Shown here: piece after piece, positions 14,700-47,685 of the stretch
Position numbering within the stretch: position 1 is the stretch's first letter
Layout: each line of letters opens with the position of its first letter
Source: a virus
Virus record (IMG/VR): IMGVR_UViG_3300031787_008043
Coordinates: 1 to 64,000 of that record
Length of the DNA stretch: 64,000 bases
Reading direction: 5' to 3' (one strand)
Notes under the pieces: model-generated
What the model saw: the letters and a program-made list of their open reading frames with translations, nothing else
The model's database searches: none
Told to the model about the DNA's origin: nothing
Translations under genes and position numbers: made by a program

Positions 14700-14784
14700 T
14701 GGTGGGAGAGGAGGGAATCGAACCCGTCCGTGCGTTGCCGCGATGGAGTTACAGTCCACTGCCTCACCTTGAGGCGTCTCTCCC
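14700..14784 (-). tRNA. tRNA-Tyr (GTA)
   Basis: Class II tRNA: acceptor GGGAGAG/CTCTCCC, anticodon loop CTGTAAC (anticodon GTA), long variable arm, discriminator A, encoded CCA at 14700-14702. Confidence 0.95.
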
Positions 14785-14790
14785 TTATTT

Positions 14791-14867
14791 TGGTAGGACA
14801 TACGGGTTTCGAACCCGTTTCTCCGCCTTGAAAGGGCGGCGACCTTCGCCAAGAAGTCCAATGTCCC
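14791..14867 (-). tRNA. tRNA-Glu (TTC)
   Basis: Acceptor GGGACAT/ATGTCCT with a terminal G-U pair, anticodon stem CCGCC/GGCGG around CTTTCAA (anticodon TTC), T-loop TTCGAAA, encoded CCA at 14791-14793. Confidence 0.93.
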
Positions 14868-14873
14868 ATAGTT

Positions 14874-14948
14874 TGGTGATGTAGGCTGGATTCGAACCAG
14901 CAACCTACGGCGTATGAGACCGTTGCACTACCGTTGTGCTACCACATC
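14874..14948 (-). tRNA. tRNA with CAT anticodon (Met, or Ile2)
   Basis: Acceptor GATGTGG/CTACATC, anticodon stem ACGGT/GCCGT with loop CTCATAC (anticodon CAT), encoded CCA at 14874-14876. It lacks initiator features. The acceptor matches neither typical elongator Met nor Ile2 identity pairs well, so whether the TilS-like enzyme encoded here modifies it is open. Confidence 0.9.
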
Positions 14949-14954
14949 ATTGTT

Positions 14955-15038
14955 TGGAGGTCGGTATGTGAATCGAACACATTACTTTGCAGTGCTATGG
15001 AGTTGCAGTCCATCCCCTTACCATCCGGGCCACCGACC
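14955..15038 (-). tRNA. tRNA-Cys (GCA)
   Basis: Acceptor GGTCGGT/ACCGACC, anticodon loop CTGCAAC (anticodon GCA), U73 discriminator as expected for Cys, and an unusually extended variable region. Encoded CCA at 14955-14957. Confidence 0.92.
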
Positions 15039-27511: not shown

Positions 27512-27790
27512 ATGGATTTTTTATCACTTGTTGGCGAAGTAGGCTTTCCTATAGCCGGGGCATTAGCAGCCGGGGGATTTGTTTTCTTAACACTAAAGTT
27601 TATTCTAGCAGGAGTAACTGGAAGTGTTACAACTCTAAAGAATATTATTGCACAACTGGATAACCGTGTGCAAACTATGAATAATGATTTAGTTAAAATT
27701 GATGCATTATTGAGTTATGCATTGAGTGTTAAGCCTAACATAGATCGTATTGCTGCAAACGAAGGTAAAAATGATGCGAGACGTGACTAA
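27512..27790 (+). CDS. Membrane protein, 92 aa (holin-like candidate)
   Basis: First gene of the plus-strand island; GAGGG ribosome site upstream of ATG 27512. The N-terminal 45 residues are hydrophobic with Gly/Ala (VGFPIAGALAAGGFVFLTLKFILAGV), followed by a helical coiled-coil-like part (TLKNIIAQLDNRVQTMNNDLVKIDALL). The next gene has the same layout, suggesting duplication. A holin or membrane-sensor role is a guess. Confidence 0.7.
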   Translation: MDFLSLVGEVGFPIAGALAAGGFVFLTLKFILAGVTGSVTTLKNIIAQLDNRVQTMNNDLVKIDALLSYALSVKPNIDRIAANEGKNDARRD

Positions 27791-28134
27791 TGGAATTTGA
27801 CATAGCAGGTGCAATTAAAGACTTTGGATTTCCTATCATTGCAGCAATGGGCATGGGCTACTTTGTTTTCTTTATATGGAAATGGGTAACCGAAGAAATT
27901 GATCCAGTTGTTGGCGAAACAATGGGTACATTGATTAAACTTGTTGATCGTGTACGCATGTTAGACAACGACATGATACGTCTAAACAGCAAACTAACAA
28001 TGGTATTAGAATATCGCCAGCACCTAGATATGTTACCACAGGATAAAAAAGATGATCTTGATGAAATAATCAACAAGTATCAAAGTCGAAGTCAAGTGTT
28101 CAACAGCACTGGCAGAGAAGATAAAAAAAAATAA
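27790..28134 (+). CDS. Membrane protein, 114 aa, paralogue of the gene before
   Basis: ATG 27790 overlaps the previous stop. Same architecture: FGFPIIAAMGMGYFVFFIWKW near the start, then a heptad-like helix (MGTLIKLVDRVRMLDNDMIRLNSKLTMVL) and a charged tail ending in KKK. Both parts align with the preceding protein (GFPI, ...LDN..., ND...), so the pair arose by duplication. Function unknown. Confidence 0.7.
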   Translation: MEFDIAGAIKDFGFPIIAAMGMGYFVFFIWKWVTEEIDPVVGETMGTLIKLVDRVRMLDNDMIRLNSKLTMVLEYRQHLDMLPQDKKDDLDEIINKYQSRSQVFNSTGREDKKK

Positions 28135-28151
28135 TAGAGGGAGAACCAGAA

Positions 28152-28487
28152 ATGGCAAGAACACCAAGAACACCAAAAACACTACAAGAAGACAGTCAGT
28201 TCAACAAGTTTGACACAGACGGCGACGGAGTTGTTTCCGACGACGAACTTGCAAAAGCAGAACGTATTGTTGACTTAGAAAACAAGGATCAAAAAGAAGA
28301 CCAACTTAGAAGAATGGCATGGGTAGCCATGTTAAGTATGGTTGTCTTTACAGTACTATTGTTTTTACCTTTTATTGGAATTGAAAGATTGGCAGCATTG
28401 GATAATATCCTAAGCATGTTCTACATTGCACAAGCAGGCGTAGTAGCATCATTCTTCGGATCCAGTGCTTATATGAGTCGTTCATAA
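28152..28487 (+). CDS. EF-hand protein with two membrane segments, 111 aa
   Basis: Residues ~20-33 read FDTDGDGVVSDDELA, a complete EF-hand Ca2+ loop (D-x-D-x-D-G-x-x-x-x-D-E). A charged linker is followed by two hydrophobic helices (MAWVAMLSMVVFTVLLFLPF and ILSMFYIAQAGVVASFFG). The two-span topology is holin-like; the EF-hand would lie in the cytoplasm or periplasm as a Ca2+ sensor. AGAGGGAGAA ribosome site. It ends the island's main operon at the terminator 28511. Confidence 0.78.
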   Translation: MARTPRTPKTLQEDSQFNKFDTDGDGVVSDDELAKAERIVDLENKDQKEDQLRRMAWVAMLSMVVFTVLLFLPFIGIERLAALDNILSMFYIAQAGVVASFFGSSAYMSRS

Positions 28488-28596: not shown

Positions 28597-28836
28597 ATGA
28601 TTTGGATAGATTATAATATAACTCAAGCCGGCGGCAATTTTAGAGTCGAAGGTGAATGGCCTGGAGAAGTTATGGGGCTCGACAGACAGGGCAATCCCGG
28701 AAACAAGAAACGTCCGTTGTATCAACCCGGTGATGTTTTTATAGTTAACAAGGATGGGTGGCTTGTTAAACAAGAAGAATTGACATCACTGATGTTAACA
28801 TATGAGAGTAAAAAATCTACTTTGTCAGGGCAATAA
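28597..28836 (+). CDS. Unknown protein, 79 aa
   Basis: Plus-strand gene between the terminator and the convergent cyclase gene, with which it overlaps by 20 nt at the 3' ends. Contains a Gly/Pro-rich start (TQAGGNFRVEGEWPGEVMGLDRQGNPG) that looks like a small beta domain. AAAAAGGC serves as a weak ribosome site. Codon use is phage-like; function unknown. Confidence 0.6.
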   Translation: MIWIDYNITQAGGNFRVEGEWPGEVMGLDRQGNPGNKKRPLYQPGDVFIVNKDGWLVKQEELTSLMLTYESKKSTLSGQ

Positions 28837-30859
28837 ACACGCCATTCCAATCTGCTGGCAATGTTTGCGTTTTCATGTATTCACAACGTTCAATCCACAT
28901 ATCGTAGTATTTTTCCATTTTGCCGTCAAATGCTCTGCGAATTAAATTACACTGTTCTATTGCTTCATCAAACTGTTTCATACGATATAGTTTGTGCATT
29001 TGATCATGATGTTTTTTACTGGTTTTCCATGTTGGTTTAACATCGTCTAATACAGTATAGATAGCAACACCTACAGTTTTACCTTTAACTGCTAAGTCAT
29101 CTACTTTGAGGAAGAAGAATTCGTCTTTGCACTGTTCTACTGTAGCGCCACCCACGAGTAATAAGCAGCCGTATTCTTTACATTTTGATTCGATTCTTGC
29201 GGCGGTGCTGACTGCGTCTCCAAGTACGTCGTAACTGTGACGTTTGGTTGACCCCATTTCTCCGATGTATCCGAGACCTGTGTTGATTCCGGCGCCCATG
29301 CCAACTGGTGGTCTTCCTTGGGGTATGATGACTGTTTCATTAAAATTCTCTACTGCTCGTAACATTTTTAAACCAGTAGCAACTGCTGTCTTTGCATGTT
29401 CAGGATCGTCTACTGGTGCATTGTGTATATGCATACTTGCATCACCGATATATTTAATAATCATACCGTTTGCATCTAGCACAGGCTGTGTGATAGCATC
29501 CATGTATCCATTCATTATTTTAGTAAGTCCTGCAACATCGTCGCCGAAACTTTCACCTAATGGTGTAAAGCCACGTAAATCGCTAAACAGTATGCTTACT
29601 TCTTTCTTCATGCCTTTCTTGACAAGATCTGGGTTTGTTTGCAATAACTTAACTACGGCAGGTGATGCATATCCTTCGAACTGTTTCTTGATTGCTTGCT
29701 TTTGTAAGAACTCACTTACAAATTTGATTACATAACGTATAATACCTACAAGCAATAGAAACGCCGCAGGTAAAAATCCATCAATCAAGAAGTTGTAGGT
29801 AGCAAAGGCATAGATGCTACCACCGATTGACCCACCTACAAGTATTACAAAAATGCCAATGCCCGCATAAGTCCAACGTGCAGCAACTATTAGTGCTAAT
29901 CCGGCAAGTACAAATGCTAATAATTCGGCACCTGGTGACCATGCAGGGCGTTCTATGTTACTTGCATTAAACACTGTGCCTAACATCATAGCCTGTAGTT
30001 CATGTGGCCACACGCCGCCTTTGGCTGTTGCAATTGGTTGTGTAATGCCAGCCGCAGTAGGACCTACAAATACTATACCTCCGGCAAAGTCTGCAGGTAG
30101 TTCTGCTGCACTGTGACTGCTAAAGCCTTGACTCCAGTCTAACCATACTCTACCAAGTCCATCAGTTTGTAGTACACCGTATTGCGGAATTCGTAATTTG
30201 TCAACTCCCAACGGTGATAATTTGATTTGGAAACTAGGATCCCCTGCTAGAACTCTAAGCACTTCCATAGTAACGTTAGGGTATAGTATTCCTCCACTTT
30301 CTAGTACTAGCGGAGCACGTCTGACAACTCCATCAATTTCTGGAAAGGTATTGATAATTCCTGACCCAACTGCTGCATTTTCAATGGCAGGCACGTTTGC
30401 TGTGATGCCAGGCACGGCAGGGATAAGATCAATAAAGTCACTATTAATGATACTAGCACCAGGGTTGATTGGTTCATTTTTATTTTCCTCAGTTCCTAAC
30501 ATTGTAACTACAACAGGATAATTACCCATAGTAGTTGATAGTATCCTGTCTTGTCCTGCTCTGTCTGTTTCGCTCATCAACACGTTAAACACAACTAGTC
30601 CTGCGCCACGTGCATATAGATCCTCTATTAGTTTAGCATAATCGCCTCTTGGCCAAGGCCACTGACCGCGAGCAGTAATACTTGCTTCATCTATATTAAC
30701 TGTATAAATGTTATTTTCTACAGGTGCTTGATTTACTATCAACTGATCAAAATATCGTAAACGTAGACTTTCCAAAAAATCAGGGTTACTGAACTGTAAC
30801 CAGCCCAACAACCCTAAAATTACAATGCTCCAAACAGGTGATAATAACAGTTTTTTCAC
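28817..30859 (-). CDS. CHASE2-domain class III adenylate/guanylate cyclase
   Basis: 680 aa. N-terminal membrane helix (~8-25), a large extracytoplasmic CHASE2 sensor domain (~27-290) with the typical FDQLI...VNIDEASI...GQWPWPR start, three membrane helices (~305-385), and a cytoplasmic class III cyclase domain (~410-620). Metal-binding Asp residues sit in LFSDLRGFT and YIGDASMH; the Lys in IKYIGD favours ATP. At the transition-state position the usual Asn is Ser (DAVSTAARIES) while the Arg is kept, so activity may be altered. Such proteins make cAMP in response to an outside signal. GTG start 30859, overlapping the small gene upstream. It ends the block with FecR and curli-type genes. Confidence 0.9.
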   Translation of the reverse strand: MKKLLLSPVWSIVILGLLGWLQFSNPDFLESLRLRYFDQLIVNQAPVENNIYTVNIDEASITARGQWPWPRGDYAKLIEDLYARGAGLVVFNVLMSETDRAGQDRILSTTMGNYPVVVTMLGTEENKNEPINPGASIINSDFIDLIPAVPGITANVPAIENAAVGSGIINTFPEIDGVVRRAPLVLESGGILYPNVTMEVLRVLAGDPSFQIKLSPLGVDKLRIPQYGVLQTDGLGRVWLDWSQGFSSHSAAELPADFAGGIVFVGPTAAGITQPIATAKGGVWPHELQAMMLGTVFNASNIERPAWSPGAELLAFVLAGLALIVAARWTYAGIGIFVILVGGSIGGSIYAFATYNFLIDGFLPAAFLLLVGIIRYVIKFVSEFLQKQAIKKQFEGYASPAVVKLLQTNPDLVKKGMKKEVSILFSDLRGFTPLGESFGDDVAGLTKIMNGYMDAITQPVLDANGMIIKYIGDASMHIHNAPVDDPEHAKTAVATGLKMLRAVENFNETVIIPQGRPPVGMGAGINTGLGYIGEMGSTKRHSYDVLGDAVSTAARIESKCKEYGCLLLVGGATVEQCKDEFFFLKVDDLAVKGKTVGVAIYTVLDDVKPTWKTSKKHHDQMHKLYRMKQFDEAIEQCNLIRRAFDGKMEKYYDMWIERCEYMKTQTLPADWNGVFIALTK

Positions 30860-31107
30860 AATTTTTTTCCTAACAGTTTTGCTTTTAGTGCATCCATTTC
30901 TTGAGATTTATTTTTTACCGGGTGTTTTTCTTCCGCCACCACATACTGGGATTGTGCTTTAGAATTTTTATAGGGTTCTTGGTCCCATCCATTGCGGCTT
31001 CTAATAGCGGCGATGCGGGCCTGAATTTCAGCAACTCTAACAGAGATTTCTGATGCTCCGGGGTTTTCATTTGCTTCTTTCAAGAATAGATTTCTAAACC
31101 AGTTCAT
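30856..31107 (-). CDS. Unknown small charged protein, 83 aa
   Basis: ATG 31107 to a stop overlapping the cyclase GTG. A short amphipathic N-terminus (MNWFRNLFLKEAN) is followed by Arg/Ala-rich helix and a Lys-rich tail. Coupled to the cyclase gene; possibly a small partner of it, by position only. Confidence 0.62.
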   Translation of the reverse strand: MNWFRNLFLKEANENPGASEISVRVAEIQARIAAIRSRNGWDQEPYKNSKAQSQYVVAEEKHPVKNKSQEMDALKAKLLGKKL

Positions 31108-31160
31108 TTAGTATATTTATTTTATAAACTCTATAATTTTAAATTATAGTTAGTTAGAAA

Positions 31161-31186
31161 GATAGGCTCCGAAGAGCCTATCTTGT
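31161..31186. terminator. Hairpin between the outer-membrane gene and the cyclase pair
   Basis: Perfect 9-bp stem GATAGGCTC/GAGCCTATC with a 4-nt loop. T-tracts are weak on the minus strand and better on the plus strand, so attenuation or mRNA 3'-end protection of the minus-strand operon is as likely as full termination. Confidence 0.65.
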
Positions 31187-31193
31187 TTTTACA

Positions 31194-33203
31194 TTAGAAC
31201 TTTAGTGAAAGACCAGCACTGATTGATGTGCTGCTTGATGTTTCTGTTCCAAACTGTGTTGCTGAAACATTTACATTTGCTTTTCCTATGTCTTTGTTAA
31301 CGCCAATCCCTAGCTTTGTGCTACCATCAGTGTTATAAATTGCACTCAAATTTACCAATCCTACATCTACGTCAGCACCAATAGTTGCATAGCCGTAGGT
31401 TTCTTCAGAACCGGTGTTGACCAGTTTGGCTTGTATGCTTCCTATTTCGCCATACCCATCAGTTGATTTTTTGCCAACAGTATACCCTAATATTGGATGT
31501 ACAACATTTGTATTTGGACGTAGTTCAATGCTTGCCCAATTATCAGTTGCCGATGTTAATCCGTGTGCAGAAAAGTATGGACTAAAAAGTACACAGCAAG
31601 GACCAATAGTTCTACTGTACGCTAGATCAGTTGACGCAGTGTTAGCAGTACCGGTGATTGTAAATTTTTCCATTTCTTTGCCAACTGTTATACCAATTTT
31701 AGTTGTTCTTGACGCACCAGTTGAATTGTTACCTGACAACTCCGATGACATGCTAACAAGGCCGCCGCCTATTATTAAACCACTGTCAGTTGTGGTATTT
31801 ACACCTAGTGAGAAGTACTGTGTATCAGCAGTGTATCCGGTGTCTGTTTCACTGCTGATGCGTCCGGCGTTAACACCAGAACCGAATCCAATGTTATGTG
31901 CTAGATTTAGGTCTAACATTGCATTTATTTGGTCCATACGTCCTATAAATGGTAGAGGGAAAGTAATTGCTGTAGTGATGTCATTGCGTAATACTGTTGT
32001 GACTGTTGGTGTTCCATCTGTTACAACAACACTGCTGTCACTGTAAGTATCTGTAGTACGCACAAATGATGTGGTAGTTACATCAACTGGTGTTGTTGTA
32101 GTTGTTGTGGTTTCACGAGCAATTGTTTGCACGCCATCTGCTACACTGCTGTCGTGTGTTGTAATACTTGCTGTTAGCACAGGAAGTGTTGTACTCGGTG
32201 CTTCGGTTGTTGAAGTTATTGTAGCAGTTGTAGTAGAAGTAATAGTAGGTGTGCCGCCACCGCTTGCTGCATCAGTTGCACTTCCCACGTCGGTTAGTGT
32301 CCATCCAGTTGGTAACACGCCGGGTGTTCCGCCGCCAGCACCACCGTCAATTGCAGAATCTGCTGCATCAAACGCACTTGGTCCAAATATATAAGCATAA
32401 CTTGCTGTGAGAATATCGCCTGCGCTAACACTTAACCAATTCCACGAAAGACCAATTGTATCATCTGCATTACAATATAGTACGCCTGCGCCGCAAGATG
32501 CATCTGCATTTATGTATGAATCTGCTTCTGAGCTCCAACTGTTGATGCCTGCTGCTACGTTTGTATCTGTTGAATATAAACCTAGTGCATAACGTGAAAC
32601 AGTTGCTTCGCTGAATGCAACGTTAGTTGATGGGATACCTGAGTAACCTAATACGTTGTCTGTGCTTGAGCTATCGCCGGCCATACCTTGGCTATCCGGA
32701 TCGATAAATTTACCAAACCAAACACTTGATGCTGCACTACCAGCAACAATTGTTGTTGTCACATCAACAAATGATGCAGTTGTACCCAATGTAAATGTAT
32801 TTGTAACATTCCATGTTGAACTGCCAAATGCTCTATCGCCGCTCCATGTTAACGTGTTAGTACCGTCAGTTAATCCGTCTGCATCAACAAATGATGTAGA
32901 ACCGGTATTGTTGTTTGCAGCATTGACGCCGTCAACCTTAAGAGAGAATCCGTCAAACGGTGCTCCTGGTGTTAGATAATCAAAGCCAGCGTTGAATGTT
33001 CCTGTTCCAGTTGGATCGAATAGTAGGCCAGGACTGGTTCCGCCACCGCTTCCAAATGTACCGGAGTTTTTGTTTACACCAGCCTTAACCCAATTATTTT
33101 CAAGTACACCCATGCTGGATGTGCCATTAATGCTACTGGTATCAGCAAATGCTGTTGTGCTTAGTAAAAGAGCCAGCACAGTGCCCCCTATTATTCGTCT
33201 CAT
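31194..33203 (-). CDS. Large autotransporter-like outer-membrane protein, 669 aa
   Basis: Signal peptide (cleavage after AFA, ~residue 20). The first ~310 residues are Gly/Ser/Thr/Asn-rich with a beta-sandwich look; residues ~315-400 are an extreme Thr/Ser/Val-rich linker (TTTTTTTPVDVTTT); the last ~250 residues alternate polar and hydrophobic strands and end in SAGLSLKF with the C-terminal Phe of outer-membrane barrels. This fits a surface-exposed passenger plus a beta-barrel. It has two adjacent Cys (CC) in the barrel part. Located in the operon with FecR and curli-type genes. The exact family is not recognised. Confidence 0.7.
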   Translation of the reverse strand: MRRIIGGTVLALLLSTTAFADTSSINGTSSMGVLENNWVKAGVNKNSGTFGSGGGTSPGLLFDPTGTGTFNAGFDYLTPGAPFDGFSLKVDGVNAANNNTGSTSFVDADGLTDGTNTLTWSGDRAFGSSTWNVTNTFTLGTTASFVDVTTTIVAGSAASSVWFGKFIDPDSQGMAGDSSSTDNVLGYSGIPSTNVAFSEATVSRYALGLYSTDTNVAAGINSWSSEADSYINADASCGAGVLYCNADDTIGLSWNWLSVSAGDILTASYAYIFGPSAFDAADSAIDGGAGGGTPGVLPTGWTLTDVGSATDAASGGGTPTITSTTTATITSTTEAPSTTLPVLTASITTHDSSVADGVQTIARETTTTTTTPVDVTTTSFVRTTDTYSDSSVVVTDGTPTVTTVLRNDITTAITFPLPFIGRMDQINAMLDLNLAHNIGFGSGVNAGRISSETDTGYTADTQYFSLGVNTTTDSGLIIGGGLVSMSSELSGNNSTGASRTTKIGITVGKEMEKFTITGTANTASTDLAYSRTIGPCCVLFSPYFSAHGLTSATDNWASIELRPNTNVVHPILGYTVGKKSTDGYGEIGSIQAKLVNTGSEETYGYATIGADVDVGLVNLSAIYNTDGSTKLGIGVNKDIGKANVNVSATQFGTETSSSTSISAGLSLKF

Positions 33204-33231
33204 TTTTTGCCCTCCATGAGATCTTGTTATG

Positions 33232-33582
33232 TTATTTAAGTTGTAGTTCTATTCCTAAAACCACGCCTATATTAGTTTCGTCGTTGTTTTTTTCAAAACC
33301 TGGCGCAACAAAAAATCTTGCCTTTCCCATATCGTAAGTGCCTCTAGCATACGGAGTAATTGCACCAAGTTCTTCATAGCCTGTTGCTATAGTAAACTCG
33401 ATACCTGTTTTTTCAGTTGGTTCTAGTCTATAACCTCCGTAAAGACTAATCCTTTCTTCGCTGTTGTAGTATGCGCCTGCGATAAAATTATTTTCTTGTA
33501 ATCTTAAATGCGGATGTAGACTATTGTAATCTCCCTCCATTCCTAAATGACTGCTTAATGCCATTGCCCATATTAAATCCAT
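33232..33582 (-). CDS. Outer-membrane-like beta protein, 116 aa
   Basis: No classical signal peptide, but the sequence is a series of short alternating strands (FIAGAYYNSEERISLYGGYR; GIEFTIATGYEEL; ARFFVAPGFE) ending in ELQLK, like half a small beta-barrel. It sits between FecR (3 nt upstream) and the large outer-membrane protein. Either a fragment of a barrel or a small partner of the neighbours. Confidence 0.6.
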   Translation of the reverse strand: MDLIWAMALSSHLGMEGDYNSLHPHLRLQENNFIAGAYYNSEERISLYGGYRLEPTEKTGIEFTIATGYEELGAITPYARGTYDMGKARFFVAPGFEKNNDETNIGVVLGIELQLK

Positions 33583-33585
33583 TTG

Positions 33586-34680
33586 TTACTCCTGTTGATT
33601 GATATTAATTGTATTATTTCCTACACCTATCCTATATCCGTATATACTAAATCCATTTTGAACCACACCCAGTGTATACCCATATCCTTGACTTAACATT
33701 AAATCAATCATATGAGAATTTTCGCTTCTTCTAAAAATATTATTAGGCGGAACCTCGTCATAAAATATTCCTGTTTCAGGATCCAATCCTAAAAACTTTT
33801 CTTCAAAAAACGCAGTATTTTGTGTGTCTAGTTCGCTTAATAACTTTTGCATCACTTCTTTCATCACTGCTGTCAGTTGATCTACAAACACTTCGTTGAG
33901 ATATGTGTTTGTATCCAAGTCTGTTACCCATATATTTTTAATACCCTCCACAAGCGGATCCTTGTCTAATTCATCAAAAGCCAAAAAGTCTATGTCTAGT
34001 AAATCAACTGCTGGCTGTGCATCTTCTGCTGCTTCGTCATAAGGATCAACTCGTCTAACAATCAGCATACTACGAAGCATGTCTTCGGGCAGTTCTAATA
34101 TTACAGGTGGTTTAGGTACCATACCGTTATGAGCAACCACTGTGGTCTGAAAGGCTTGATTCATTATAACTATACCTTCGTCTGTTTCAACAGTTATTTC
34201 GCCAACCACGCACATGCCAGCAGTGTTGCAACTTGGCAACAGTGTAACCATACTGCCGCCGATTTCGTCTACAATCATCATAAAGTCTGTTCCACGTACA
34301 CCGATAGTTGCACTTGGTGTTTCGATATTAACATTTTGTCTGCTGTTCTTAGCAATAGCGCCACTGGCATAACGAACAGCACCTAGCGTTGCTCGCATAC
34401 TCAATTCACCAGTACCACTGTTAGGATCATACACAAACTCATCAATGACCATGCGGCTGTGTTCAGTAACATCAACACGAGTATCGTCCGCAAACTGTAA
34501 TTGCATACGACCGTTGGCAGTAGCAATTGTATCTTGCATTTCGAGTCCTACACCTTGTTCTCCGAGTATCTCTGTGGACTCACGCTTAACAATACCACTG
34601 CCATCGATGGTTGCTATTTCGCCTACATTGGCATATGCGGTATTAGCTATCAACAGCAATGGTATAATATATTTCAGCAT
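33586..34680 (-). CDS. FecR-domain periplasmic protein
   Basis: 364 aa with a signal peptide cleaved near AYA (~residue 18). Residues ~25-150 form a FecR domain: GEIATIDGSGIVKRES, LEMQDTIATANGRMQLQFADDTRVDV, LSMRATLGAVRYASG and TPSATIGVRGTDFMM, the last being the signature of the family. The remaining 200 residues are acidic and helical. FecR domains relay or scaffold signals in the periplasm and often occur beside CHASE2 cyclases in proteobacteria, as here. ATG 34680 overlaps the curlin-like stop. Confidence 0.87.
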   Translation of the reverse strand: MLKYIIPLLLIANTAYANVGEIATIDGSGIVKRESTEILGEQGVGLEMQDTIATANGRMQLQFADDTRVDVTEHSRMVIDEFVYDPNSGTGELSMRATLGAVRYASGAIAKNSRQNVNIETPSATIGVRGTDFMMIVDEIGGSMVTLLPSCNTAGMCVVGEITVETDEGIVIMNQAFQTTVVAHNGMVPKPPVILELPEDMLRSMLIVRRVDPYDEAAEDAQPAVDLLDIDFLAFDELDKDPLVEGIKNIWVTDLDTNTYLNEVFVDQLTAVMKEVMQKLLSELDTQNTAFFEEKFLGLDPETGIFYDEVPPNNIFRRSENSHMIDLMLSQGYGYTLGVVQNGFSIYGYRIGVGNNTININQQE

Positions 34681-35372
34681 TAATCAGTCTGTGTAATTGT
34701 TACAGTCCCGTCGTTGGCCGTTGATGTTACATTAACGGTCTTGTCCGTTAATCCGCTTTGTGTTATGTTGATATTATTTCCGCCACCTGTTAAATCATAG
34801 GTAATACTGTGTCCGTTTACACCGCCTGCATCATCTTGATCTATGGTAACAGTGTTGCCGCTGGCTGCTAAACTATTGTCAATGGTAAATGTAACATCAG
34901 CATTGGTTGCATCCAAGTTGGCTAAAATAACGTTGCCGTCGCCGTCGATGGTAAATTCTGCTACAAGGTTATCTGTAACTTTATTTTCACCAATATATAC
35001 GCTAAAGTCGTTGCTGTTTCCATTAACTGTAATGTCAACTGTTACAATTTCGCAGTTTGCGCCGTTTGTTATATCGCAGGTTAAATCAACTGTGTTGCTG
35101 TCCCCGTTGAATATCCAGTCACCTGTATATGTATTGCCCTTAATAGTTGCTGCTATAACGTTATAATCGCCGTTTTGTGTAATATCAAATGTCATATCAT
35201 CACCTGAAAGCAAGGCAGGTGCAGTTGTTGACAGGTCGCCGATCTTGTTGCCAGAACCGGTTTGACTAACAGTCAATGCAAGGTTGTCCCCTATTTGTTG
35301 TATGTAGATTTCGTTAGCCAAGGCCGCAGAACTAACTAGTACAAACAAGGCCCCTATTATTATTTTTTTCAT
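34680..35372 (-). CDS. Curlin-like repeat protein
   Basis: 230 aa with signal peptide (after ALA, ~residue 19). The mature part consists of imperfect Asn/Gly/Gln/Asp-rich repeats with the curlin pattern (IQQIGDN...SQTGSGN; ITQNGDYN; NGDSNTV; VNGNSNDF; DGDGNV; GGGNNINITQSG), which build beta-helical amyloid subunits such as CsgA. Acidic and without aromatic-rich regions. It should be exported through the CsgG pore encoded just upstream. One Cys pair (LTCDITNGANCE) is unusual for curlins. Confidence 0.82.
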   Translation of the reverse strand: MKKIIIGALFVLVSSAALANEIYIQQIGDNLALTVSQTGSGNKIGDLSTTAPALLSGDDMTFDITQNGDYNVIAATIKGNTYTGDWIFNGDSNTVDLTCDITNGANCEIVTVDITVNGNSNDFSVYIGENKVTDNLVAEFTIDGDGNVILANLDATNADVTFTIDNSLAASGNTVTIDQDDAGGVNGHSITYDLTGGGNNINITQSGLTDKTVNVTSTANDGTVTITQTD

Positions 35373-35384
35373 TTTTTATTGCCC

Positions 35385-36164
35385 TCATTTAAAACTCCAC
35401 AGCTCTCTACGAGCTCCTTCGTATATTAGTTCTATTATTCCTGCCTCTATTGCTGCCCTCACAGCATAGTTGGTAGGTTCGTTGACACTAAATCCACTCT
35501 CGATTTCCAGTGCCTTGGTGCTCATGTCTAAGAACTTAAATACATCTGCACCAGTTTTGTGACTAGCTATAGTTTTCTCAGTAGCCACACTTATTAGCAC
35601 TCTTCCTGTGCTAACACTTACTAAACGCATTGCAACTGTTACAGTATCTACTCTGTACTCCGATCCTGCGCCTATTCCAAAGTAACGTGCTCCGGTTCCT
35701 CCTGTTGCTACGTTACTGTCATATCCCACTATTCCGCCTTCTAGTATCAACCCTGCAAATTGCATAGGATTCAATGGATCAGGATTGTCTAAATAATTTT
35801 CTCTTGTTTGACGTATAAGTTGACGTTCTGCAATTACATTGTCCATGCCTACACGTTCTACAACTTCAAACCAACTGCCGTTGCCTACCTGCATCAGTGC
35901 ATCTATTACCCAAACTTCTGCACCTTGTGTTACTGCACTACTCAAACTGCTAAAGTTATCTGCTGGCTCTCGTTGCCCGGTTTTGTCTGTGAAACTGTAA
36001 ACACCGATAGTCATCTTAGGTCCATTTAGTGCAGGAACATTTGCAAGTTCTACACGCAAGGGATTATCTTGAATTCTCGGTTCTTCTATGATTTCACTGG
36101 CTTGTTCTTCTATCGACACACATCCAGTTAGAAATAACAATCCTACTAATGCTGCTTTAATCAA
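35385..36164 (-). CDS. csgG: CsgG-like curli secretion lipoprotein
   Basis: 259 aa, close to E. coli CsgG (277). Lipobox LFLTGC with Cys at ~15. The mature sequence follows CsgG: PALNGPKMTIGVYSFTDKTGQ, ...ALMQVGNGSWFEVVERVGMDNVIAERQLIRQTR, GLILEGGIVGYDSN, ARYFGIGAGSEYRVDTVTVAMRLVSVSTGRVL, TNYAVRAAIEAGIIELIYEG. CsgG forms the nonameric outer-membrane pore that exports curlin. Start is TTG 36164 overlapping the CsgF stop (TTGA), showing coupling. A phage copy suggests export of the curlin-like protein or reuse as a pore. Confidence 0.92.
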   Translation of the reverse strand: MIKAALVGLLFLTGCVSIEEQASEIIEEPRIQDNPLRVELANVPALNGPKMTIGVYSFTDKTGQREPADNFSSLSSAVTQGAEVWVIDALMQVGNGSWFEVVERVGMDNVIAERQLIRQTRENYLDNPDPLNPMQFAGLILEGGIVGYDSNVATGGTGARYFGIGAGSEYRVDTVTVAMRLVSVSTGRVLISVATEKTIASHKTGADVFKFLDMSTKALEIESGFSVNEPTNYAVRAAIEAGIIELIYEGARRELWSFK

Positions 36165-36625
36165 AAGTTAAACTCCCCTGCGCCAGGTATAGTAATAGTG
36201 GTTGTTCCTTCATCGCTTACAACCTCCAAAGTAATACTACCGGTAACAGTGTCTTTGCTCCAACTAATAGTACTGCCTTCTATTTCAGTTGTACCACTGG
36301 TCGGACAAGTTGCTCCTGTTTCATCAGCACAAGACTCGAACATAGCATCCACCATCTGCTTGGATAGTGTAGCATATATTCTACTTTCTATGTTGCGTAA
36401 AAATTTGTTGAGTGTTGAGTTTTCTAATTCTCGCTCTATGCGTTCTTGTTCAGCAGCAATAGCATCGTCAATATCTTTTTGTCTATTGAACCCTAGTTGT
36501 TCAATACCCAACACATGATTACTATACCCTTCACCGCTAAAACTTGGATTTTTAAATGTATGAACTAATTCTGCATTTGCAAATGTCGGTAATAGCATCA
36601 ACATGACTATCGAGATTTTTTTCAT
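36161..36625 (-). CDS. csgF: CsgF-like curli assembly factor
   Basis: 154 aa with signal peptide (cleavage after ANA, ~residue 18). The mature N-terminus LVHTFKNPSFSGEGYSNHVLG matches the CsgF segment that inserts in the CsgG pore (NPSF...). A charged helix and a C-terminal beta part follow. CsgF couples curlin secretion to nucleation at the cell surface. It is the first gene of the csgF-csgG-curlin-fecR run, with a GAGGCG ribosome site. Confidence 0.87.
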   Translation of the reverse strand: MKKISIVMLMLLPTFANAELVHTFKNPSFSGEGYSNHVLGIEQLGFNRQKDIDDAIAAEQERIERELENSTLNKFLRNIESRIYATLSKQMVDAMFESCADETGATCPTSGTTEIEGSTISWSKDTVTGSITLEVVSDEGTTTITIPGAGEFNF

Positions 36626-38340: not shown

Positions 38341-39024
38341 TTATTCAATGTCTGGAAACAAACATTCTTGTACGAATGCTCTTACATCTTCTTCGTTGAG
38401 CCCTAATGCTGTCATAGTACGTGGTGTATGTGGATTTTGTTTTTGATAATATGCATAGCGATTTTGTGCAGTCTTACCCAATTCTGCTGTGCAAGTGCCT
38501 GCATACTTTTGTATTTCAGTACCGTAATCTTCTAGATTAGCCCACGACAATTGTAGAAGTTTAAGCAGTTCTTCTTCGGTGTTAACATTGCCCACTGCCA
38601 ACATGTGTTTGCTAAAAATTGCCTGCGCCCATTCAGGTAACTCGCGTTCTTTCTTCCAAGAGTGATCTTTTAGAACATCACCAAACTGTTCAATCATAGC
38701 ATGGTTGTTGTCGACAGTAGGAGATAGATCGTGAAAGAATCCAGTGACTTTGTTTTTGCCTGCAATTACATCAAGCCCGTAGATTGGTCCAGAATTGTCC
38801 AGGTGTGGAAAAATACAAAAGTGCATCATCCAGAGACCTTTTGTTTCTCTGGCATCGACTACATCTAGATGTATGCGTCTTGCCCAGCCACTTTCCCAAA
38901 CAAGATTGATCCAGCCGGGTTGATTGAATCTGTCCATCCCAGGTTCATTAACACGTTCTGCGACTGAGTCTAAGTTATCAACAACTTCTTCTTGCCAGTC
39001 AATTAAGTAATTCCATACTGTCAT
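38341..39024 (-). CDS. Ferredoxin-dependent bilin reductase (PcyX/PebS-type)
   Basis: 227 aa from ATG 39024 (GGGA site). The HY2/FDBR signature covers residues ~35-110: WINLVWESGWARRIHLDVVDARETKGLWMMHF..., then FPHLDNSGPIYGLDVIAG with the catalytic-type Asp, and GFFHDLSP. Members reduce biliverdin to phycobilins using ferredoxin. Phage versions such as PebS and PcyX make phycoerythrobilin in four electrons; which product forms here cannot be told. A heme oxygenase that would supply biliverdin is encoded one gene upstream (40186). Confidence 0.85.
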   Translation of the reverse strand: MTVWNYLIDWQEEVVDNLDSVAERVNEPGMDRFNQPGWINLVWESGWARRIHLDVVDARETKGLWMMHFCIFPHLDNSGPIYGLDVIAGKNKVTGFFHDLSPTVDNNHAMIEQFGDVLKDHSWKKERELPEWAQAIFSKHMLAVGNVNTEEELLKLLQLSWANLEDYGTEIQKYAGTCTAELGKTAQNRYAYYQKQNPHTPRTMTALGLNEEDVRAFVQECLFPDIE

Positions 39025-40193
39025 CTGATATCCCAATAATAATAAATTATACTTTTTTTTCCGTTTACAACGTCTTCTACAGTAGATACCTCAGCATCGG
39101 CCCCGAAGACATGGCCGAAGTGAAAAAGATCATAAAGTAGAATGTCACAAATTTTATCCCCGTCATTGAATTTTAATTTTTTAATTAGTTGTTTTTGCTC
39201 ATTTACAACACTATTAAATAAAACATTGTAATTGTGATTTACATCGTCGTTTATTCTCTCAAAATCTAAATTTTTCCAGTTTTCTCTTATATGACAAATG
39301 TTTTTAAATGCTGCTTCGAATCGATGTTCGTTGGAAGTTATGTTGTCATAATTTATTGGAAAACAATATTCAAATGTTTTAAATCCTTGAGATCTTAAGT
39401 GTTCTTCTGATCCGGGTTGACCAAACAATATAAACGGATGTCTATTTATTATGGCTCTATATGTTTTTTCAGTAATCCATAAGACAGATCTGTTTGCTCC
39501 TGTTTCGGAAATTAGTGACCATGAAGTATCCGAATATAGATTCTGACTGTAGGGAAATCCATCATAACTAAAAAGATTTCCGTACTGTGAAACTTTGATG
39601 TTGTCTGGATTTCTTGAAGCAGAAGAAACAAAGTGTTGCAATTCGCCATTGTTGATATTTAAAAATCTCTTAATATCTACTGCATATTCTTTATAATAAA
39701 AGAAACTCCATTCCATGTCAATTTCATTTAACAAGTTATTATCTAATAAAAATTTTAATGGTATTAGTCTTTGAGGCTTATGCGCTTTTCCTGTAAGTAA
39801 CAATCCTCTAAACTTGGATTTATCCCATTTTTTTGCTGTTTGTTGATTGTTGATGGTTGTTGCATGTACTGTCTTGCTTTGGAAAAAATTGTATTTTATA
39901 ATATTTTTTGGAAGATCATCTTGATCATCTGCACATACACTATATAAAATAAAAAAATCTACATTGTAATTTTTGAGTTTGTTTTTAAAAAAGTTGTGTA
40001 AAAAGTTTAAATCTTTAACAAATGTTATTTCCCACATATGATTTAAAACAAATACAATTTGTTCATTTATTCCACGAGACTTTATGTTTTTTAAAAATAT
40101 TTGCATGTCAGAAAAGCATTCTTCATATTGTGGTGCATCATCCATTACATCACTAAAGTACGGTAATCTAACATGAACAAAAAGTTTACTCAT
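39021..40193 (-). CDS. Probable glycosyltransferase-like protein, 390 aa
   Basis: Markedly more AT-rich than its neighbours and inserted between the heme oxygenase and bilin reductase genes, overlapping both (by 8 and 4 nt). The segment WITEKTYRAIINRHPFILFGQPGSEEHLRSQGFKTF (written here only as WITEKTYRAI...GFKTF) resembles the nucleotide-sugar site region of glycosyltransferases of the fucosyltransferase-like group. Many Asn, Lys, Phe and Tyr residues. The function is uncertain; its codon bias suggests separate acquisition. Confidence 0.55.
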   Translation of the reverse strand: MSKLFVHVRLPYFSDVMDDAPQYEECFSDMQIFLKNIKSRGINEQIVFVLNHMWEITFVKDLNFLHNFFKNKLKNYNVDFFILYSVCADDQDDLPKNIIKYNFFQSKTVHATTINNQQTAKKWDKSKFRGLLLTGKAHKPQRLIPLKFLLDNNLLNEIDMEWSFFYYKEYAVDIKRFLNINNGELQHFVSSASRNPDNIKVSQYGNLFSYDGFPYSQNLYSDTSWSLISETGANRSVLWITEKTYRAIINRHPFILFGQPGSEEHLRSQGFKTFEYCFPINYDNITSNEHRFEAAFKNICHIRENWKNLDFERINDDVNHNYNVLFNSVVNEQKQLIKKLKFNDGDKICDILLYDLFHFGHVFGADAEVSTVEDVVNGKKSIIYYYWDIR

Positions 40194-40713
40194 CTAACTC
40201 AACAAACAACTGCATTGCAAATTCAAAACAACGATTTGCTTCCTCTGCCATTGAGTCGTTTAACATAGATCTAACAGTTGCTTTGAGTTCTTCTACGTTA
40301 TCAAAATCGTACATGGTGCCCGAACCAGGATTGCGTTTTCTAATCATTTGCCCGCCGTACATATCGCCAAAATGACGAACATATATGTGTGCAAGTATTC
40401 CTTGCCTGTCTAAAGTTATAACATGACGTTCATATTCACGTACAACCGGCATCAGTAGTGCAGATGTTGTGCCGATAGCATATTCTTTTTCAATTTCTCT
40501 AAGATCGGCGTAGATTCGTTCTGCTCTGTTTATACTCTTGAGTTCGGGTACTAATGATTTAGCAGCATCTTCCAGTATTGAATAAATCATATATTGATTG
40601 TAGAGATATTTGTGATACTCTTCAGGGGTTAGACCTTTAAGTAGTTTGCAAGCGAACTCAGTACGCTCTGCTCGTTGATGTACTTCCCAAGTGAGTTCTT
40701 TTAGTTTGCTCAT
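40186..40713 (-). CDS. ho1: Heme oxygenase
   Basis: 175 aa. The heme-ligating His is in WEVHQRAE near residue 12; the distal helix HIYVRHFGDMYGGQMI near 110 contains the conserved glycine-rich GDMYGGQ. The enzyme opens heme to biliverdin, iron and CO using ferredoxin. With the bilin reductase downstream it forms a two-step bilin pathway, as in cyanophages (ho1-pebS). ATG 40713 overlaps the ClpS stop (40710), so it is coupled to the proteostasis genes upstream. Phage length is slightly short of bacterial enzymes (~200-240). Confidence 0.9.
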   Translation of the reverse strand: MSKLKELTWEVHQRAERTEFACKLLKGLTPEEYHKYLYNQYMIYSILEDAAKSLVPELKSINRAERIYADLREIEKEYAIGTTSALLMPVVREYERHVITLDRQGILAHIYVRHFGDMYGGQMIRKRNPGSGTMYDFDNVEELKATVRSMLNDSMAEEANRCFEFAMQLFVELDE

Positions 40714-41066: not shown

Positions 41067-41516
41067 TTAGCCTTGAATTAGATTTGGTATTTCAATAGCA
41101 ATCTTCTTAGGCTGCAATGCTTCTGGAACATTTCGCACTAGATGAATGTTTAACATACCAAGTTCGAGTGTTGCATTGGCAACTTCGACATGCTCGGCTA
41201 GTGTAAAGGCTCTACGGAATACGCGACCAGCAATTCCTTTGTGTAGATACTTTACTTCCTCGTCACCCTTTGGTGGTGTACCCTCAACAGTCAACGTGTT
41301 CTTATCAAGAACAATGTCGAGGTTGTCCATACCAAATCCCGCAACTGCAATAGAGATCATCCATTCGTTCTCATTGATTTCTGCAACGTTGTATGGAGGA
41401 TAGTTACTTGTGCTTTGTGAGTTAGCAAATTGACGTTCTAAATCATGAAAGATTCTATCAAAGCCAACTGTGGCACGGTGAAATGAAGGTAAGTCTAGAG
41501 TTGTAAGTCTTGTCAT
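41067..41516 (-). CDS. Small heat-shock protein (Hsp20/IbpA family)
   Basis: 149 aa. Central alpha-crystallin domain (~35-130) with NEWMISIAVAGFGMDNLDIVLDKNTLTVEG, a loop KGIAGRVFRRAFTLAEHVEVANATLELGMLNIHLVR and the C-terminal I-x-I-like KKIAIEIP (quoted in part). The alphaproteobacterial/phage GIAxRxFxRxFxLAE pattern is clear. It holds unfolded proteins for refolding; T4-like marine phages often carry one, possibly for capsid assembly. Confidence 0.93.
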   Translation of the reverse strand: MTRLTTLDLPSFHRATVGFDRIFHDLERQFANSQSTSNYPPYNVAEINENEWMISIAVAGFGMDNLDIVLDKNTLTVEGTPPKGDEEVKYLHKGIAGRVFRRAFTLAEHVEVANATLELGMLNIHLVRNVPEALQPKKIAIEIPNLIQG

Positions 41517-41569: not shown

Positions 41570-42694
41570 TTATTTACCATTGTTCGCATACACACCGTTA
41601 AATTGTTGTGTTACACGAACAAAGGTTGTGCATTTGCTAAGTTGTTTTAATGTCTTAGCGCCTGCATATGTGCAGGTAGATCTAATACCGCCAAGCAGTT
41701 CCTGTACTGTGTTGTTCACAGGACCTCTGTAAGGCACTAACACCTCCCTGCCTTCTGACGCTCGATAATCTTTCAAGCCGCCAAAATGTTTGTCGTTTGC
41801 TGCTTTACTGCTCATACCATAGAACTTGACAAACCGTTTTTCTTCTACAACAAGATTTACACCATCGTGCTGTAGTTGATTTGTTCGGTAGTATTTGGCA
41901 ATGACTTCACCACCGCCTTCATCATGTCCGGCCAGCATCCCGCCCAGCATCACAAAGTCAGCACCAGCAGCAAAGGCTTTAGCAACATCGCCAGGGCAAG
42001 TACAACCGCCATCGGCAATAACATGACCACCAAGACCATGAGCAGCATCCGCACACTCGATGATGGCGGATAGTTGGGGATAGCCGACCCCAGTTTGTAT
42101 ACGAGTAGTACAAACACTGCCAGGACCAATGCCGACTTTAACAATATCTGCTCCAGCAAGAATTAATTCCTCTGTCATTTCGCCAGTAACAACATTACCA
42201 GCAATGATTACAATATGTGGATAACGTTCGCGAATATTTCGTACATGATTTACAAATGTTTCTGTGTAACCATTTGCAACGTCAATACACAGATACTTTA
42301 GTTGTTCGCTAACATTAAGATAAACCTTGCAAAATTTGTCGTAGTCTGCATTGCTAACGCCAATGCTCATAGCAACATGTTCAGTACGAATGCTGTTGCC
42401 TTTAAAGAAATCTATAAGTTCTTGAGCACTGTATGTTTTAACAAGGCAAGTAAATGTACCGGATTTTGCTAGTGTGTCAGCCATGTCAAATGTGCCAACA
42501 CCGTCCATGTTAGCGGCCATAATAGGAACGCCACGATAGTGGTAATCTTCGATGTTATCTGGAAATCTCGGAACGTAATTTCTAAAACTAAATCTACGTT
42601 CTAGGTCTACTTCACTACGACTGCCTAGTGTGCTTCTTTTAGGACGAATAAGAACGTCCTTATAATCTAATTTAACGTCGGTTTCTAACCGCAT
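41570..42694 (-). CDS. guaC: GMP reductase
   Basis: 374 aa, IMP dehydrogenase/GMP reductase TIM barrel without CBS domains. The region [21 protein letters not shown] near residue 190 contains the catalytic Cys loop in GMP-reductase form, followed by [35 protein letters not shown]. It converts GMP to IMP with NADPH and so links RNA-derived GMP to the adenine pool, useful with the phage ribonucleotide reductase for balancing AT-rich dNTP needs. ATG 42694. Confidence 0.93.
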
Positions 42695-47214: not shown

Positions 47215-47388
47215 TATGAGGAGATTCTGTTGCTACGCTCTCCCCGGGCGCCCTGTAGTTATGCTGCTAGAGCAAACTCAGAAGGTGCAAAATTTTCATT
47301 TGCAGTTGTCATTTTCTTCGCGGTAACGGCGCTTAGATCCCGGTGACTCCATCCTGCCTAGTTCGTTGATCGATCCTATGTCAGGCCC
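47215..47388 (-). ncRNA. ssrA: tmRNA coding piece (permuted ssrA)
   Basis: The 5' end GGGCCTG (47382-47388) pairs over 7 bp, with one G-U, to the acceptor-piece strand CAGGTCC at 47567-47573. A D-arm-like segment, a short stem region and then the reading frame follow: resume codon GCA at 47301-47303 through TAA at 47259-47261 encodes the tag ANENFAPSEFALAA, closely matching alphaproteobacterial tags (Caulobacter AANDNFAEEFAVAA type). After the stop, GC-rich hairpin sequence GGGCGCCCGG and a GGAGA/TCTCC helix end the piece near 47215-47225. The exact 3' end is uncertain. Confidence 0.9.
47259..47303 (-). other. tmRNA proteolysis tag reading frame
   Basis: Fourteen codons plus TAA encoding ANENFAPSEFALAA. 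The hydrophobic ALAA end is what ClpXP and ClpAP recognise. Charged/polar ANENF start is the usual SspB-binding type. Confidence 0.92.
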
Positions 47389-47389
47389 A

Positions 47390-47551
47390 TCATAAAAATA
47401 CTGCGATTAATCCTAATACTAAAACAAATATAATACTTACATTACCCCAAAAGATCTGTTCTTGCTCAGTCGGTACCTGTTCATCACAGTACTTTTTCCA
47501 ATCAAGATCTTCGCTTCTGTCTTTACTCTCATCGTAATATACATACATCAT
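47390..47551 (-). CDS. Small membrane protein encoded in the tmRNA spacer, 53 aa
   Basis: ATG 47551 to TGA 47390, lying entirely inside the 174-nt intervening segment between the two tmRNA pieces and filling all but 12 nt of it. The first 35 residues are hydrophilic and acidic (DESKDRSEDLDWKKYCDE), the last 18 form one membrane helix (NVSIIFVLVLGLIAVFL). Codon use is phage-like and the protein resembles the many one-span small proteins in this genome, but a ribosome site is weak (AGAAGA). Translation and maturation of the RNA would compete if both occur on one transcript. Confidence 0.65.
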   Translation of the reverse strand: MMYVYYDESKDRSEDLDWKKYCDEQVPTEQEQIFWGNVSIIFVLVLGLIAVFL

Positions 47552-47562
47552 CAGTCTTCTTA

Positions 47563-47622
47563 TGGTGGACCTGCCGGGTGCCGCCCCCGGGTCTCATCCG
47601 TGTTCAGTGAACTTCAACATCA
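47563..47622 (-). ncRNA. ssrA: tmRNA acceptor piece (permuted ssrA)
   Basis: Minus-strand 3' end carries discriminator A and encoded CCA (47563-47565 on the plus strand as TGG). T-arm stem CCGGG/CCCGG (47574-47578/47586-47590) encloses a 7-nt loop GGCGGCA, the altered T-loop seen in alphaproteobacterial tmRNA. The acceptor strand CAGGTCC pairs with the 5' end of the coding piece. Preceding ACACGGATGAGAC fits the P2 side. In the gene this piece comes first, the order found in alphaproteobacterial two-piece tmRNA. Confidence 0.9.
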
Positions 47623-47627
47623 CAAGT

Positions 47628-47658
47628 TATTTATATGCTAAAACAGTCAACCAGTCAA
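47628..47658 (-). promoter_or_regulatory. tmRNA promoter, sigma-70 overlapping a late promoter
   Basis: -35 TTGACT (47653-47658), 17-nt spacer and -10 TATAAA (47630-47635); a second TTGACT lies at 47645-47650. The -10 also forms an exact TATAAATA (47628-47635), so host and late phage transcription could both use it. Predicted start near 47622. Confidence 0.8.
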
Positions 47659-47672
47659 GAACTTTTTTGTGT

Positions 47673-47685
47673 ATGCTTGTTCGTC
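47673..47685 (-). pseudogene. First codons of a formate dehydrogenase delta-subunit gene (fragment)
   Basis: An ATG overlaps the fdsA stop (ATGA) and reads M-T-N-K before running into phage-like sequence and a stop. In Rhodobacterales operons fdsD starts at this place. Only the start remains. Confidence 0.5.

What the first reader, a model, noticed from the sequence alone, without database searches (positions are those of the whole stretch)
28817..36625. Curli-type secretion genes joined to FecR and a CHASE2 cyclase in one phage block
csgF, csgG, a curlin-repeat protein, fecR, two outer-membrane beta proteins, a small protein and a CHASE2-adenylate cyclase lie in the same direction with overlaps or short gaps. 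In bacteria FecR and CHASE2 cyclases form envelope-sensing modules, and curli genes have been noted in pelagimyophage genomes, but their combination in a phage would make a complete outside-in system: secreted amyloid or pore, periplasmic relay and cAMP output. Possible uses are sensing host-surface state, blocking superinfection, or changing cell aggregation.
Basis: partly seen in the sequence, partly recalled or inferred. Interest (0 to 1): 0.85.

Follow-up and report, generated by a model that had tools for sequence, protein, structure and literature searches.

The report
Phage curli–FecR–CHASE2 cyclase module
This aquatic phage carries a compact set of genes for a curli-type protein-fibre exporter together with a sensor protein and a membrane cAMP-making enzyme; the set is already known from ocean phages, is nearly always kept together, and probably lets an infected cell remodel or monitor its own surface.

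Summary
At 28817-36625 (minus strand) lie csgF, csgG, a curlin-like gene, fecR, a small outer-membrane-like gene, a 669-aa surface protein, an 83-aa gene and a CHASE2 class III cyclase, with overlaps or gaps of at most 86 nt. The combination is not new: csgF-csgG-CsgA/B-FecR-(CsgA/B)-adenylate cyclase in pelagiphages was published in 2022 (PMC9599517), and the order is the same in HTVC008M and Melnitz. Linkage is near-absolute: fecR follows csgG in 105 of 105 distinct viral csgG loci, the cyclase in 54 of 55.

New here: (1) the cyclase is a CHASE2 receptor and the best-conserved core protein (dN/dS about 0.10); (2) phage FecR ends in a beta domain with a conserved curlin-like last strand, absent from the bacterial relative; (3) a Hyphomonas MAG chromosome carries csgF-csgG-curlin-fecR-CHASE2 cyclase in the same order, contrary to the view that FecR and cyclase never join bacterial curli operons; (4) in the window's clade the cyclase has Ser for the transition-state Asn.

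FecR coupling pore or fibre to cyclase is plausible but untested, and no phage or SAR11 cAMP receptor was found.

The parts
36161..36625 (-). csgF homologue (154 aa, signal peptide; N-terminal FKNPSFSG motif)
   Evidence: PF10614 2.6e-11 above cut-off; phrog_35372 1.8e-48
35385..36164 (-). csgG homologue, outer-membrane lipoprotein pore (259 aa; lipobox Cys15 invariant in 23 relatives)
   Evidence: PF03783 1.4e-50; E. coli CsgG structures aligned over 6-258; A2 alignment
34680..35372 (-). curlin-like (CsgA/B-type) repeat protein, 230 aa, signal peptide, two invariant Cys
   Evidence: PF07012 in 55 of 72 relatives at E<=0.1; AF2 all-beta repeat model, pLDDT 87.6; no PDB fold match at E<=0.001
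33586..34680 (-). FecR-domain periplasmic protein (364 aa): FecR domain about 20-182, helix 262-292, C-terminal beta domain about 300-364 ending in a curlin-like strand GNNTININQ
   Evidence: PF04773 2e-10; AF2 model; FecR part matches the PupR signalling domain 6ovk E 4e-4; tail motif in 111/129 relatives
33232..33582 (-). small outer-membrane beta-protein-like gene (116 aa)
   Evidence: PF13505 E 0.04, phrog_3600 7.8e-8; conserved between FecR/second curlin and the cyclase in many relatives
31194..33203 (-). 669-aa secreted surface protein of unknown family, probable C-terminal beta-barrel
   Evidence: no family match; ten relatives 45-58% identical at the same place
31159..31184 (-). 11-bp RNA hairpin with cUUCGg loop between the 669-aa and 83-aa genes (no T-run on this strand)
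   Evidence: fold z-score -5.3 for 31108-31193; sequence
30856..31107 (-). 83-aa small protein overlapping the cyclase start
   Evidence: ORF; relatives next to the cyclase in many loci, either side of it
28817..30859 (-). CHASE2-class III adenylate cyclase (680 aa): TM, CHASE2 15-322, three TMs, cyclase domain 416-595
   Evidence: PF05226 1.6e-37, PF00211 1.1e-17; metal Asp427/Asp473, Lys469, Arg555 invariant, Asp544 in 92 of 95, Ser551 in place of Asn

Best explanation
This is a member of the phage type VIII secretion (curli)-FecR-cyclase module. Shown by sequence: CsgG and CsgF homologues that should form the outer-membrane pore, a secreted curlin-repeat protein as cargo, a periplasmic FecR-domain protein, and an inner-membrane cyclase whose CHASE2 receptor domain faces the periplasm. 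Inferred: on infection the phage gives its host, which in the known SAR11 and OM43 cases lacks curli, a surface amyloid, and FecR is the periplasmic link. Its FecR domain would address the CHASE2 cyclase and its curlin-like C-terminal beta domain would engage the curlin or the CsgG pore, so that the state of export or of the fibre sets cyclase activity and hence cAMP. Who reads the cAMP is unknown; it would have to be a host protein.
For: Families and domain order. Near-absolute linkage and order across viral loci: csgF-csgG 214/214 (not de-duplicated), and de-duplicated csgG-fecR 105/105, csgG-cyclase 54/55, cyclase-csgG 74/76. All measurable genes are under purifying selection; among the five core genes the cyclase has the lowest median dN/dS (0.098; csgG 0.15, fecR 0.14) and the highest mean column identity (66% against 60, 44 and 39%). 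FecR tail motif in 111/129 phage FecRs against 0.35% of other windows of the same proteins and 1.3% of shuffled tails; profile comparison of tail with curlin P 0.009 against 0.25 and 0.53 for the other FecR parts; confident beta domain at the tail. Bacterial precedent for the FecR-CHASE2 logic: in Verrucomicrobia the gene directly upstream of the CHASE2 cyclase fuses FecR, TPR and a TonB-receptor barrel; in an alphaproteobacterium a FecR protein lies directly upstream (L281). In S. meliloti the CHASE2 cyclases CyaK and CyaD1/D2 act with the outer-membrane receptor NsrA (PMC7529298), removing CHASE2 makes CyaD1 constitutive, and a FecR-domain protein, SMc02177, is a Clr target (PMC5498481). In Burkholderia an operon of FecR protein and CHASE2 kinase controls biofilm (PMC5192318). 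The whole five-gene module also lies on a bacterial contig of 705 kb, Hyphomonas TMED17.
Against: Pfam's Curlin_rpt does not hit any of 29 FecRs at E<=1, so the tail's kinship to curlin is suggestive only, and Foldseek found no amyloid match for it. No cNMP_binding protein in ten phage records or in one SAR11 MAG. Ser551 replaces the transition-state Asn, which could lower activity. No TATAAATA late promoter lies upstream of csgF and a hairpin splits the gene string, so co-expression is unproven. No clumping was seen in Melnitz-infected cultures (PMC9004378). The Hyphomonas FecR lacks the curlin-like tail, so the tail is not needed in that relative.
Confidence: 0.42

Rival explanations
1. Surface remodelling without sensing: CsgG/CsgF and curlin make a surface fibre or coat (superinfection block or host aggregation, 'sibling capture'), FecR is a nucleator or anchor (CsgB-like, or like a retention module), and the cyclase independently lifts host cAMP.
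For: FecR tail resembles a curlin strand, as a nucleator would; the FecR domain model also matches the retention domain of a giant RTX adhesin, 5ix9 (26% identity, rmsd 1.1 A over 62 columns, E 9e-3; sequence E 0.05); the window's module lacks the second curlin gene, as do ten of 128 fecR-cyclase loci, leaving FecR as a possible second subunit. Aggregation and superinfection roles proposed in PMC7029224 and PMC9599517.
Against: FecR and CHASE2 proteins are paired in bacteria without any curli gene, which favours a direct FecR-CHASE2 relation. No clumping in Melnitz cultures (PMC9004378).
Confidence: 0.27
2. Lysis pore: CsgGF is repurposed as a gated outer-membrane pore that times lysis (the Melnitz authors' proposal).
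For: PMC9004378: structural model and synteny; no csgE gate gene in these modules; in the basal phage contig L108 a small membrane gene resembling the phrog_18771 genes of the window sits directly upstream of csgF, and two members converge on the window's module.
Against: Curlin and FecR accompany csgG in 184/186 and 154/154 loci, and curlin and cyclase are under purifying selection, which a pore-only role does not explain.
Confidence: 0.1
3. Import pore: an ungated CsgG lets cofactors or siderophores into the infected cell, with FecR as an iron-related regulator.
For: No csgE; FecR is named for ferric citrate signalling; proposed in PMC9599517.
Against: FecR proteins of the ferric citrate type work with a FecI-type sigma factor and a TonB receptor (established knowledge), which I did not find in the module; secreted curlin and a CHASE2 cyclase are not explained.
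Confidence: 0.1
4. Decaying or hitch-hiking bacterial operon without present function.
For: Hosts of the cultured relatives lack curli genes (PMC7029224, PMC9004378); a bacterial counterpart exists.
Against: Module retained in hundreds of viral contigs (at least 595 csgG relatives) with order intact and dN/dS about 0.1-0.15; expressed in ocean metatranscriptomes (PMC9599517).
Confidence: 0.03

Closest known systems
Pelagiphage type VIII secretion (curli) module, PMC9599517 (HTVC023P-type podophages and pelagimyophages); HTVC008M KC465899; Melnitz MZ577095
   Same: csgF-csgG-curlin-FecR-(curlin)-cyclase, same order and strand, no csgC/D/E
   Different: The window lacks the second curlin between FecR and the cyclase, and has a 116-aa outer-membrane-like gene, a 669-aa surface protein and an 83-aa gene there; no histidine kinase was recognised upstream. 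The three papers do not mention CHASE2.
Hyphomonas sp. TMED17 chromosomal cluster (L105)
   Same: csgF-csgG-curlin-fecR-CHASE2 cyclase, same order, one strand; its cyclase groups with the phage ones apart from other bacterial CHASE2 cyclases
   Different: 35% cyclase identity; canonical Asn; 504-aa curlin; FecR without the curlin-like tail; unique among 385 alphaproteobacterial genomes, and 20 other Hyphomonadaceae curli loci lack FecR and cyclase
S. meliloti NsrA / CyaK-CyaD1-CyaD2 (CHASE2 cyclases) / Clr circuit
   Same: Outer-membrane barrel plus inner-membrane CHASE2 cyclase giving cAMP; a FecR-domain protein is a Clr target (PMC5498481, PMC7529298, PMC13001267)
   Different: No curli genes described; the phage encodes no recognised cAMP receptor; the phage barrel is CsgG, not NsrA
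Burkholderia BiofilmReg operon (FecR-LysM protein plus CHASE2 histidine kinase)
   Same: FecR protein next to a CHASE2 receptor, biofilm control (PMC5192318)
   Different: Kinase output, no curli, no cyclase
Verrucomicrobial FecR-TPR-TonB barrel fusion plus CHASE2 cyclase (L121, L126)
   Same: FecR physically joined to an outer-membrane barrel, directly upstream of a CHASE2 cyclase
   Different: One fused receptor protein instead of separate csgG and fecR; no curli

Membership tests
Phage T8SS (curli)-FecR-AC module | csgF, csgG, curlin, fecR in order, cyclase downstream, csgC/D/E absent | tested here: met
Phage T8SS (curli)-FecR-AC module | second CsgA/B copy after fecR (frequent, not universal, so not defining) | tested here: not met
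   absent in the window virus (L004/L084); absent in 10 of 128 fecR-cyclase loci
CsgG pore family | CsgG domain over the full length and lipobox Cys | tested here: met
CsgF | CsgF domain with N-terminal pore-binding motif | tested here: met
   PF10614 44.2 bits against cut-off 25.8; FKNPSFSG motif read from sequence
Curlin (CsgA/CsgB) | curlin repeats above the curated cut-off | tested here: inconclusive
   17.2 against 20.7 bits in the window; best relative 6e-10, 55 of 72 at E<=0.1
Curlin (CsgA/CsgB) | forms amyloid fibres | not testable with these tools
   needs Congo red, thioflavin or EM
FecR/PupR signalling proteins | FecR domain fold | tested here: met
   PF04773; Foldseek PupR 6ovk E 4e-4, probability 1.0
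FecR/PupR signalling proteins | N-terminal cytoplasmic anti-sigma part | tested here: not met
   the protein starts with a signal peptide and the FecR domain begins at about residue 20; so it is not a FecR-type anti-sigma regulator
CHASE2 adenylate cyclases | CHASE2 domain plus class III cyclase domain | tested here: met
CHASE2 adenylate cyclases | complete class III catalytic set | tested here: inconclusive
   two metal Asp, Lys and Arg invariant, Asp544 nearly so; the transition-state Asn is Ser551 in 92 of 95 rows, Asn in the bacterial relatives that could be read and in five of 80 distinct phage cyclases

The most novel reading that the evidence does not exclude
A phage-encoded trans-envelope circuit in which a FecR-curlin chimera physically couples a virus-encoded amyloid pore or fibre to a CHASE2 cyclase, so that the infected cell reports the state of its surface as cAMP; the circuit was taken whole from an alphaproteobacterial curli-FecR-CHASE2 operon of which the Hyphomonas cluster is a surviving relative.
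Probability: 0.28. Interest if true: 0.78.

Novelty: new member of a known kind. Interest (0 to 1): 0.5.

Why it matters
Curli modules are widespread in aquatic phages, yet no function has been shown. Recognising the cyclase as a CHASE2 receptor and FecR as a likely periplasmic linker with a curlin-like tail turns a vague 'auxiliary gene' puzzle into bench questions: does FecR bind CHASE2, does it bind curlin or CsgG, and does cAMP rise on infection? The bacterial Hyphomonas counterpart points to a cell in which the same circuit could be studied without a phage.

Tried and rejected
Chance or misannotation: rejected by profile hits and by linkage. Prophage nature of the Hyphomonas cluster: its neighbours are TonB receptors, a racemase-like protein, an FAA hydrolase-like protein and a 2OG oxygenase-like protein on a 705 kb contig (names read from sequence), so I take it as chromosomal. 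MAG hits L102-L104 and L106-L108 were at first possible bacterial modules; they carry phage-type modules on short contigs or fall inside the phage clade, and I treat them as phage contigs binned into MAGs. T4-type late promoter upstream of csgF: none found. Sigma-70-like sites no more than chance. Pfam Curlin_rpt on FecR: no hit. Fold search of the curlin model: no match at E<=0.001, so its identity rests on sequence repeats and position. Phage cAMP receptor: none found.
Full report
OBSERVATION. The minus strand of 28817-36625 holds the genes described, in the order csgF, csgG, curlin-like, fecR, 116-aa outer-membrane-like gene, 669-aa surface protein, 83-aa gene, CHASE2 cyclase. CsgF, CsgG, FecR, CHASE2 and the cyclase domain pass curated cut-offs; the curlin falls just short alone but its family does not. 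CsgG aligns with the solved E. coli pore over almost its whole length. The longest gap is 86 nt and holds an 11-bp hairpin with a cUUCGg loop (z -5.3). The record is a 68.7 kb viral contig; a 111 kb contig (L004) carries the same module with a 100% identical cyclase. Its closest annotated relatives by DNA are the Kyanoviridae phages Melnitz and HTVC008M, and the window has an alphaproteobacterial-type tmRNA. The host is not known.

ALREADY KNOWN. HTVC008M and Melnitz have the same order. Zaragoza-Solas 2020 (PMC7029224) described the curli cluster in pelagimyophages. The 2022 mSystems paper PMC9599517 described CsgF-CsgG-CsgA/B-FecR-(CsgA/B)-adenylate cyclase in podophage and myophage pelagiphages, its spread over 65 ocean stations and its expression.

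LINKAGE. I fetched viral loci by cyclase, by FecR and twice by CsgG and annotated them with profiles built here. After removing identical proteins, fecR follows csgG within 2.5 kb in 105 of 105 cases, the cyclase within 8 kb on the same strand in 54 of 55, and csgG precedes the cyclase in 74 of 76. The exception L066 has the two halves next to each other on opposite strands; L101 has a cyclase with a 1696-aa FecR protein and no csg genes. Lists were ranked by similarity to the queries, so very distant phages are under-sampled. Among the five core genes the cyclase has the lowest median dN/dS (0.098) and the highest conservation (the 116-aa gene gave 0.056 from only five pairs).

THE CYCLASE. 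TM, periplasmic CHASE2, three TMs and a class III catalytic domain (TMs read from sequence). Both metal Asp, the adenine-type Lys469 and Arg555 are invariant and Asp544 is nearly so, but the transition-state Asn is Ser551 in 92 of 95 rows; bacteria and five of 80 distinct phage cyclases keep Asn. The roles of these residues are established knowledge of class III cyclases. Activity is likely but perhaps altered; this is inference.

FecR. It has a signal peptide, a FecR domain at about 20-182 whose model matches the PupR signalling domain (E 4e-4), a long helix, and a C-terminal beta domain. It lacks the cytoplasmic anti-sigma part, so it is not a FecI/FecR-type regulator. The last strand reads like a curlin strand (for example GGGNSITITQ in relatives; the CsgA comparison is from memory). 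The motif is in 111 of 129 phage FecRs, in 0.35% of other windows and 1.3% of shuffled tails; the tail profile fits the curlin profile at P 0.009 while the other FecR parts do not. Pfam does not see it, so I call it suggestive. The FecR domain also resembles the retention domain of a giant adhesin, 5ix9, which supports an anchoring rival; that 5ix9 is a retention domain is from my own knowledge.

BACTERIAL COUNTERPARTS. A genome-wide pattern scan and genome searches found one bacterial contig, in a Hyphomonas MAG, with csgF-csgG-curlin-fecR-CHASE2 cyclase in order among ordinary bacterial genes. Twenty other Hyphomonadaceae curli loci lack fecR and cyclase; in 385 alphaproteobacterial genomes csgG occurs in 6, a CHASE2 cyclase in 155, linked only in this one. 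Its cyclase falls with the phage cyclases (support 99) and its CsgG lies, with the basal phage contig L108, between the phage clade and other bacterial CsgG. Long branches make the direction of transfer uncertain. FecR next to CHASE2 cyclases without curli is seen in other bacteria, including Verrucomicrobia where FecR is fused to TPRs and a TonB-receptor barrel: evidence that FecR links an outer-membrane barrel to a CHASE2 receptor.

MECHANISM. Best supported: a phage-encoded pore and fibre with a FecR link to a CHASE2 cyclase. The parts and their order are shown; the coupling, cargo export and cAMP output are inferred from domain families and from S. meliloti (PMC5498481, PMC7529298, PMC13001267) and Burkholderia (PMC5192318). 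The weak point is the receiver: no cNMP-binding domain in ten phage records or in one SAR11 MAG, though several viral records and the MAG may be incomplete.

VERDICT. Real, conserved and partly explained, but a new member of a published kind. The additions are the CHASE2 identity, the FecR tail, the Ser551 clade and the Hyphomonas counterpart.

Noticed in passing
47684-50692 (minus): Formate dehydrogenase alpha subunit (TIGR01591, 927 bits against cut-off 666) with GC about 57% in a 40% GC phage; its 3' end abuts an alpha-type permuted tmRNA at 47215-47662, and the contig L004 breaks inside the same gene. Recent acquisition or assembly join; not settled.
   Followed up: partly
38341-39036 and 40186-40713 (minus): PcyA-type bilin reductase and heme oxygenase a little upstream of the curli module, the known phage bilin cassette type (PMC11480375), with an unknown 390-aa gene between them.
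   Followed up: partly
27512-28487 (plus): Two tandem phrog_18771 membrane-protein paralogues and an EF-hand membrane protein converge on the cyclase gene; a similar-looking gene sits directly upstream of csgF in L108. Possible holin-like genes.
   Followed up: no
L101 9989-20340: 137 kb viral contig with a 1696-aa FecR protein and a CHASE2-type cyclase but no csg genes.
   Followed up: no
L121, L123, L126, L130, L132: Verrucomicrobia: FecR ORFs of about 1,200 aa directly upstream of, or overlapping, CHASE2 cyclases; two were scanned and are FecR-TPR-TonB-receptor fusions.
   Followed up: partly
L102, L103, L104, L106, L107, L108: Phage curli modules or phage-type cyclases on short contigs filed as Rhodobacteraceae, Pirellulales, Flavobacteriaceae and Pelagibacter MAGs: probable mis-binned phage contigs.
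   Followed up: partly
15758-16885, 41570-42694, 3078-4490, 54910-57216, 7944-9098, 41067-41516 (minus): Other phage cargo: Orn/Arg/DAP-type decarboxylase, IMPDH/GMPR, Band-7 protein, NrdA, T4 RNA ligase 1-like, Hsp20.
   Followed up: no
12460-15038 and 137-389 (minus): Fifteen tRNA genes by ARAGORN, mostly in one cluster.
   Followed up: no
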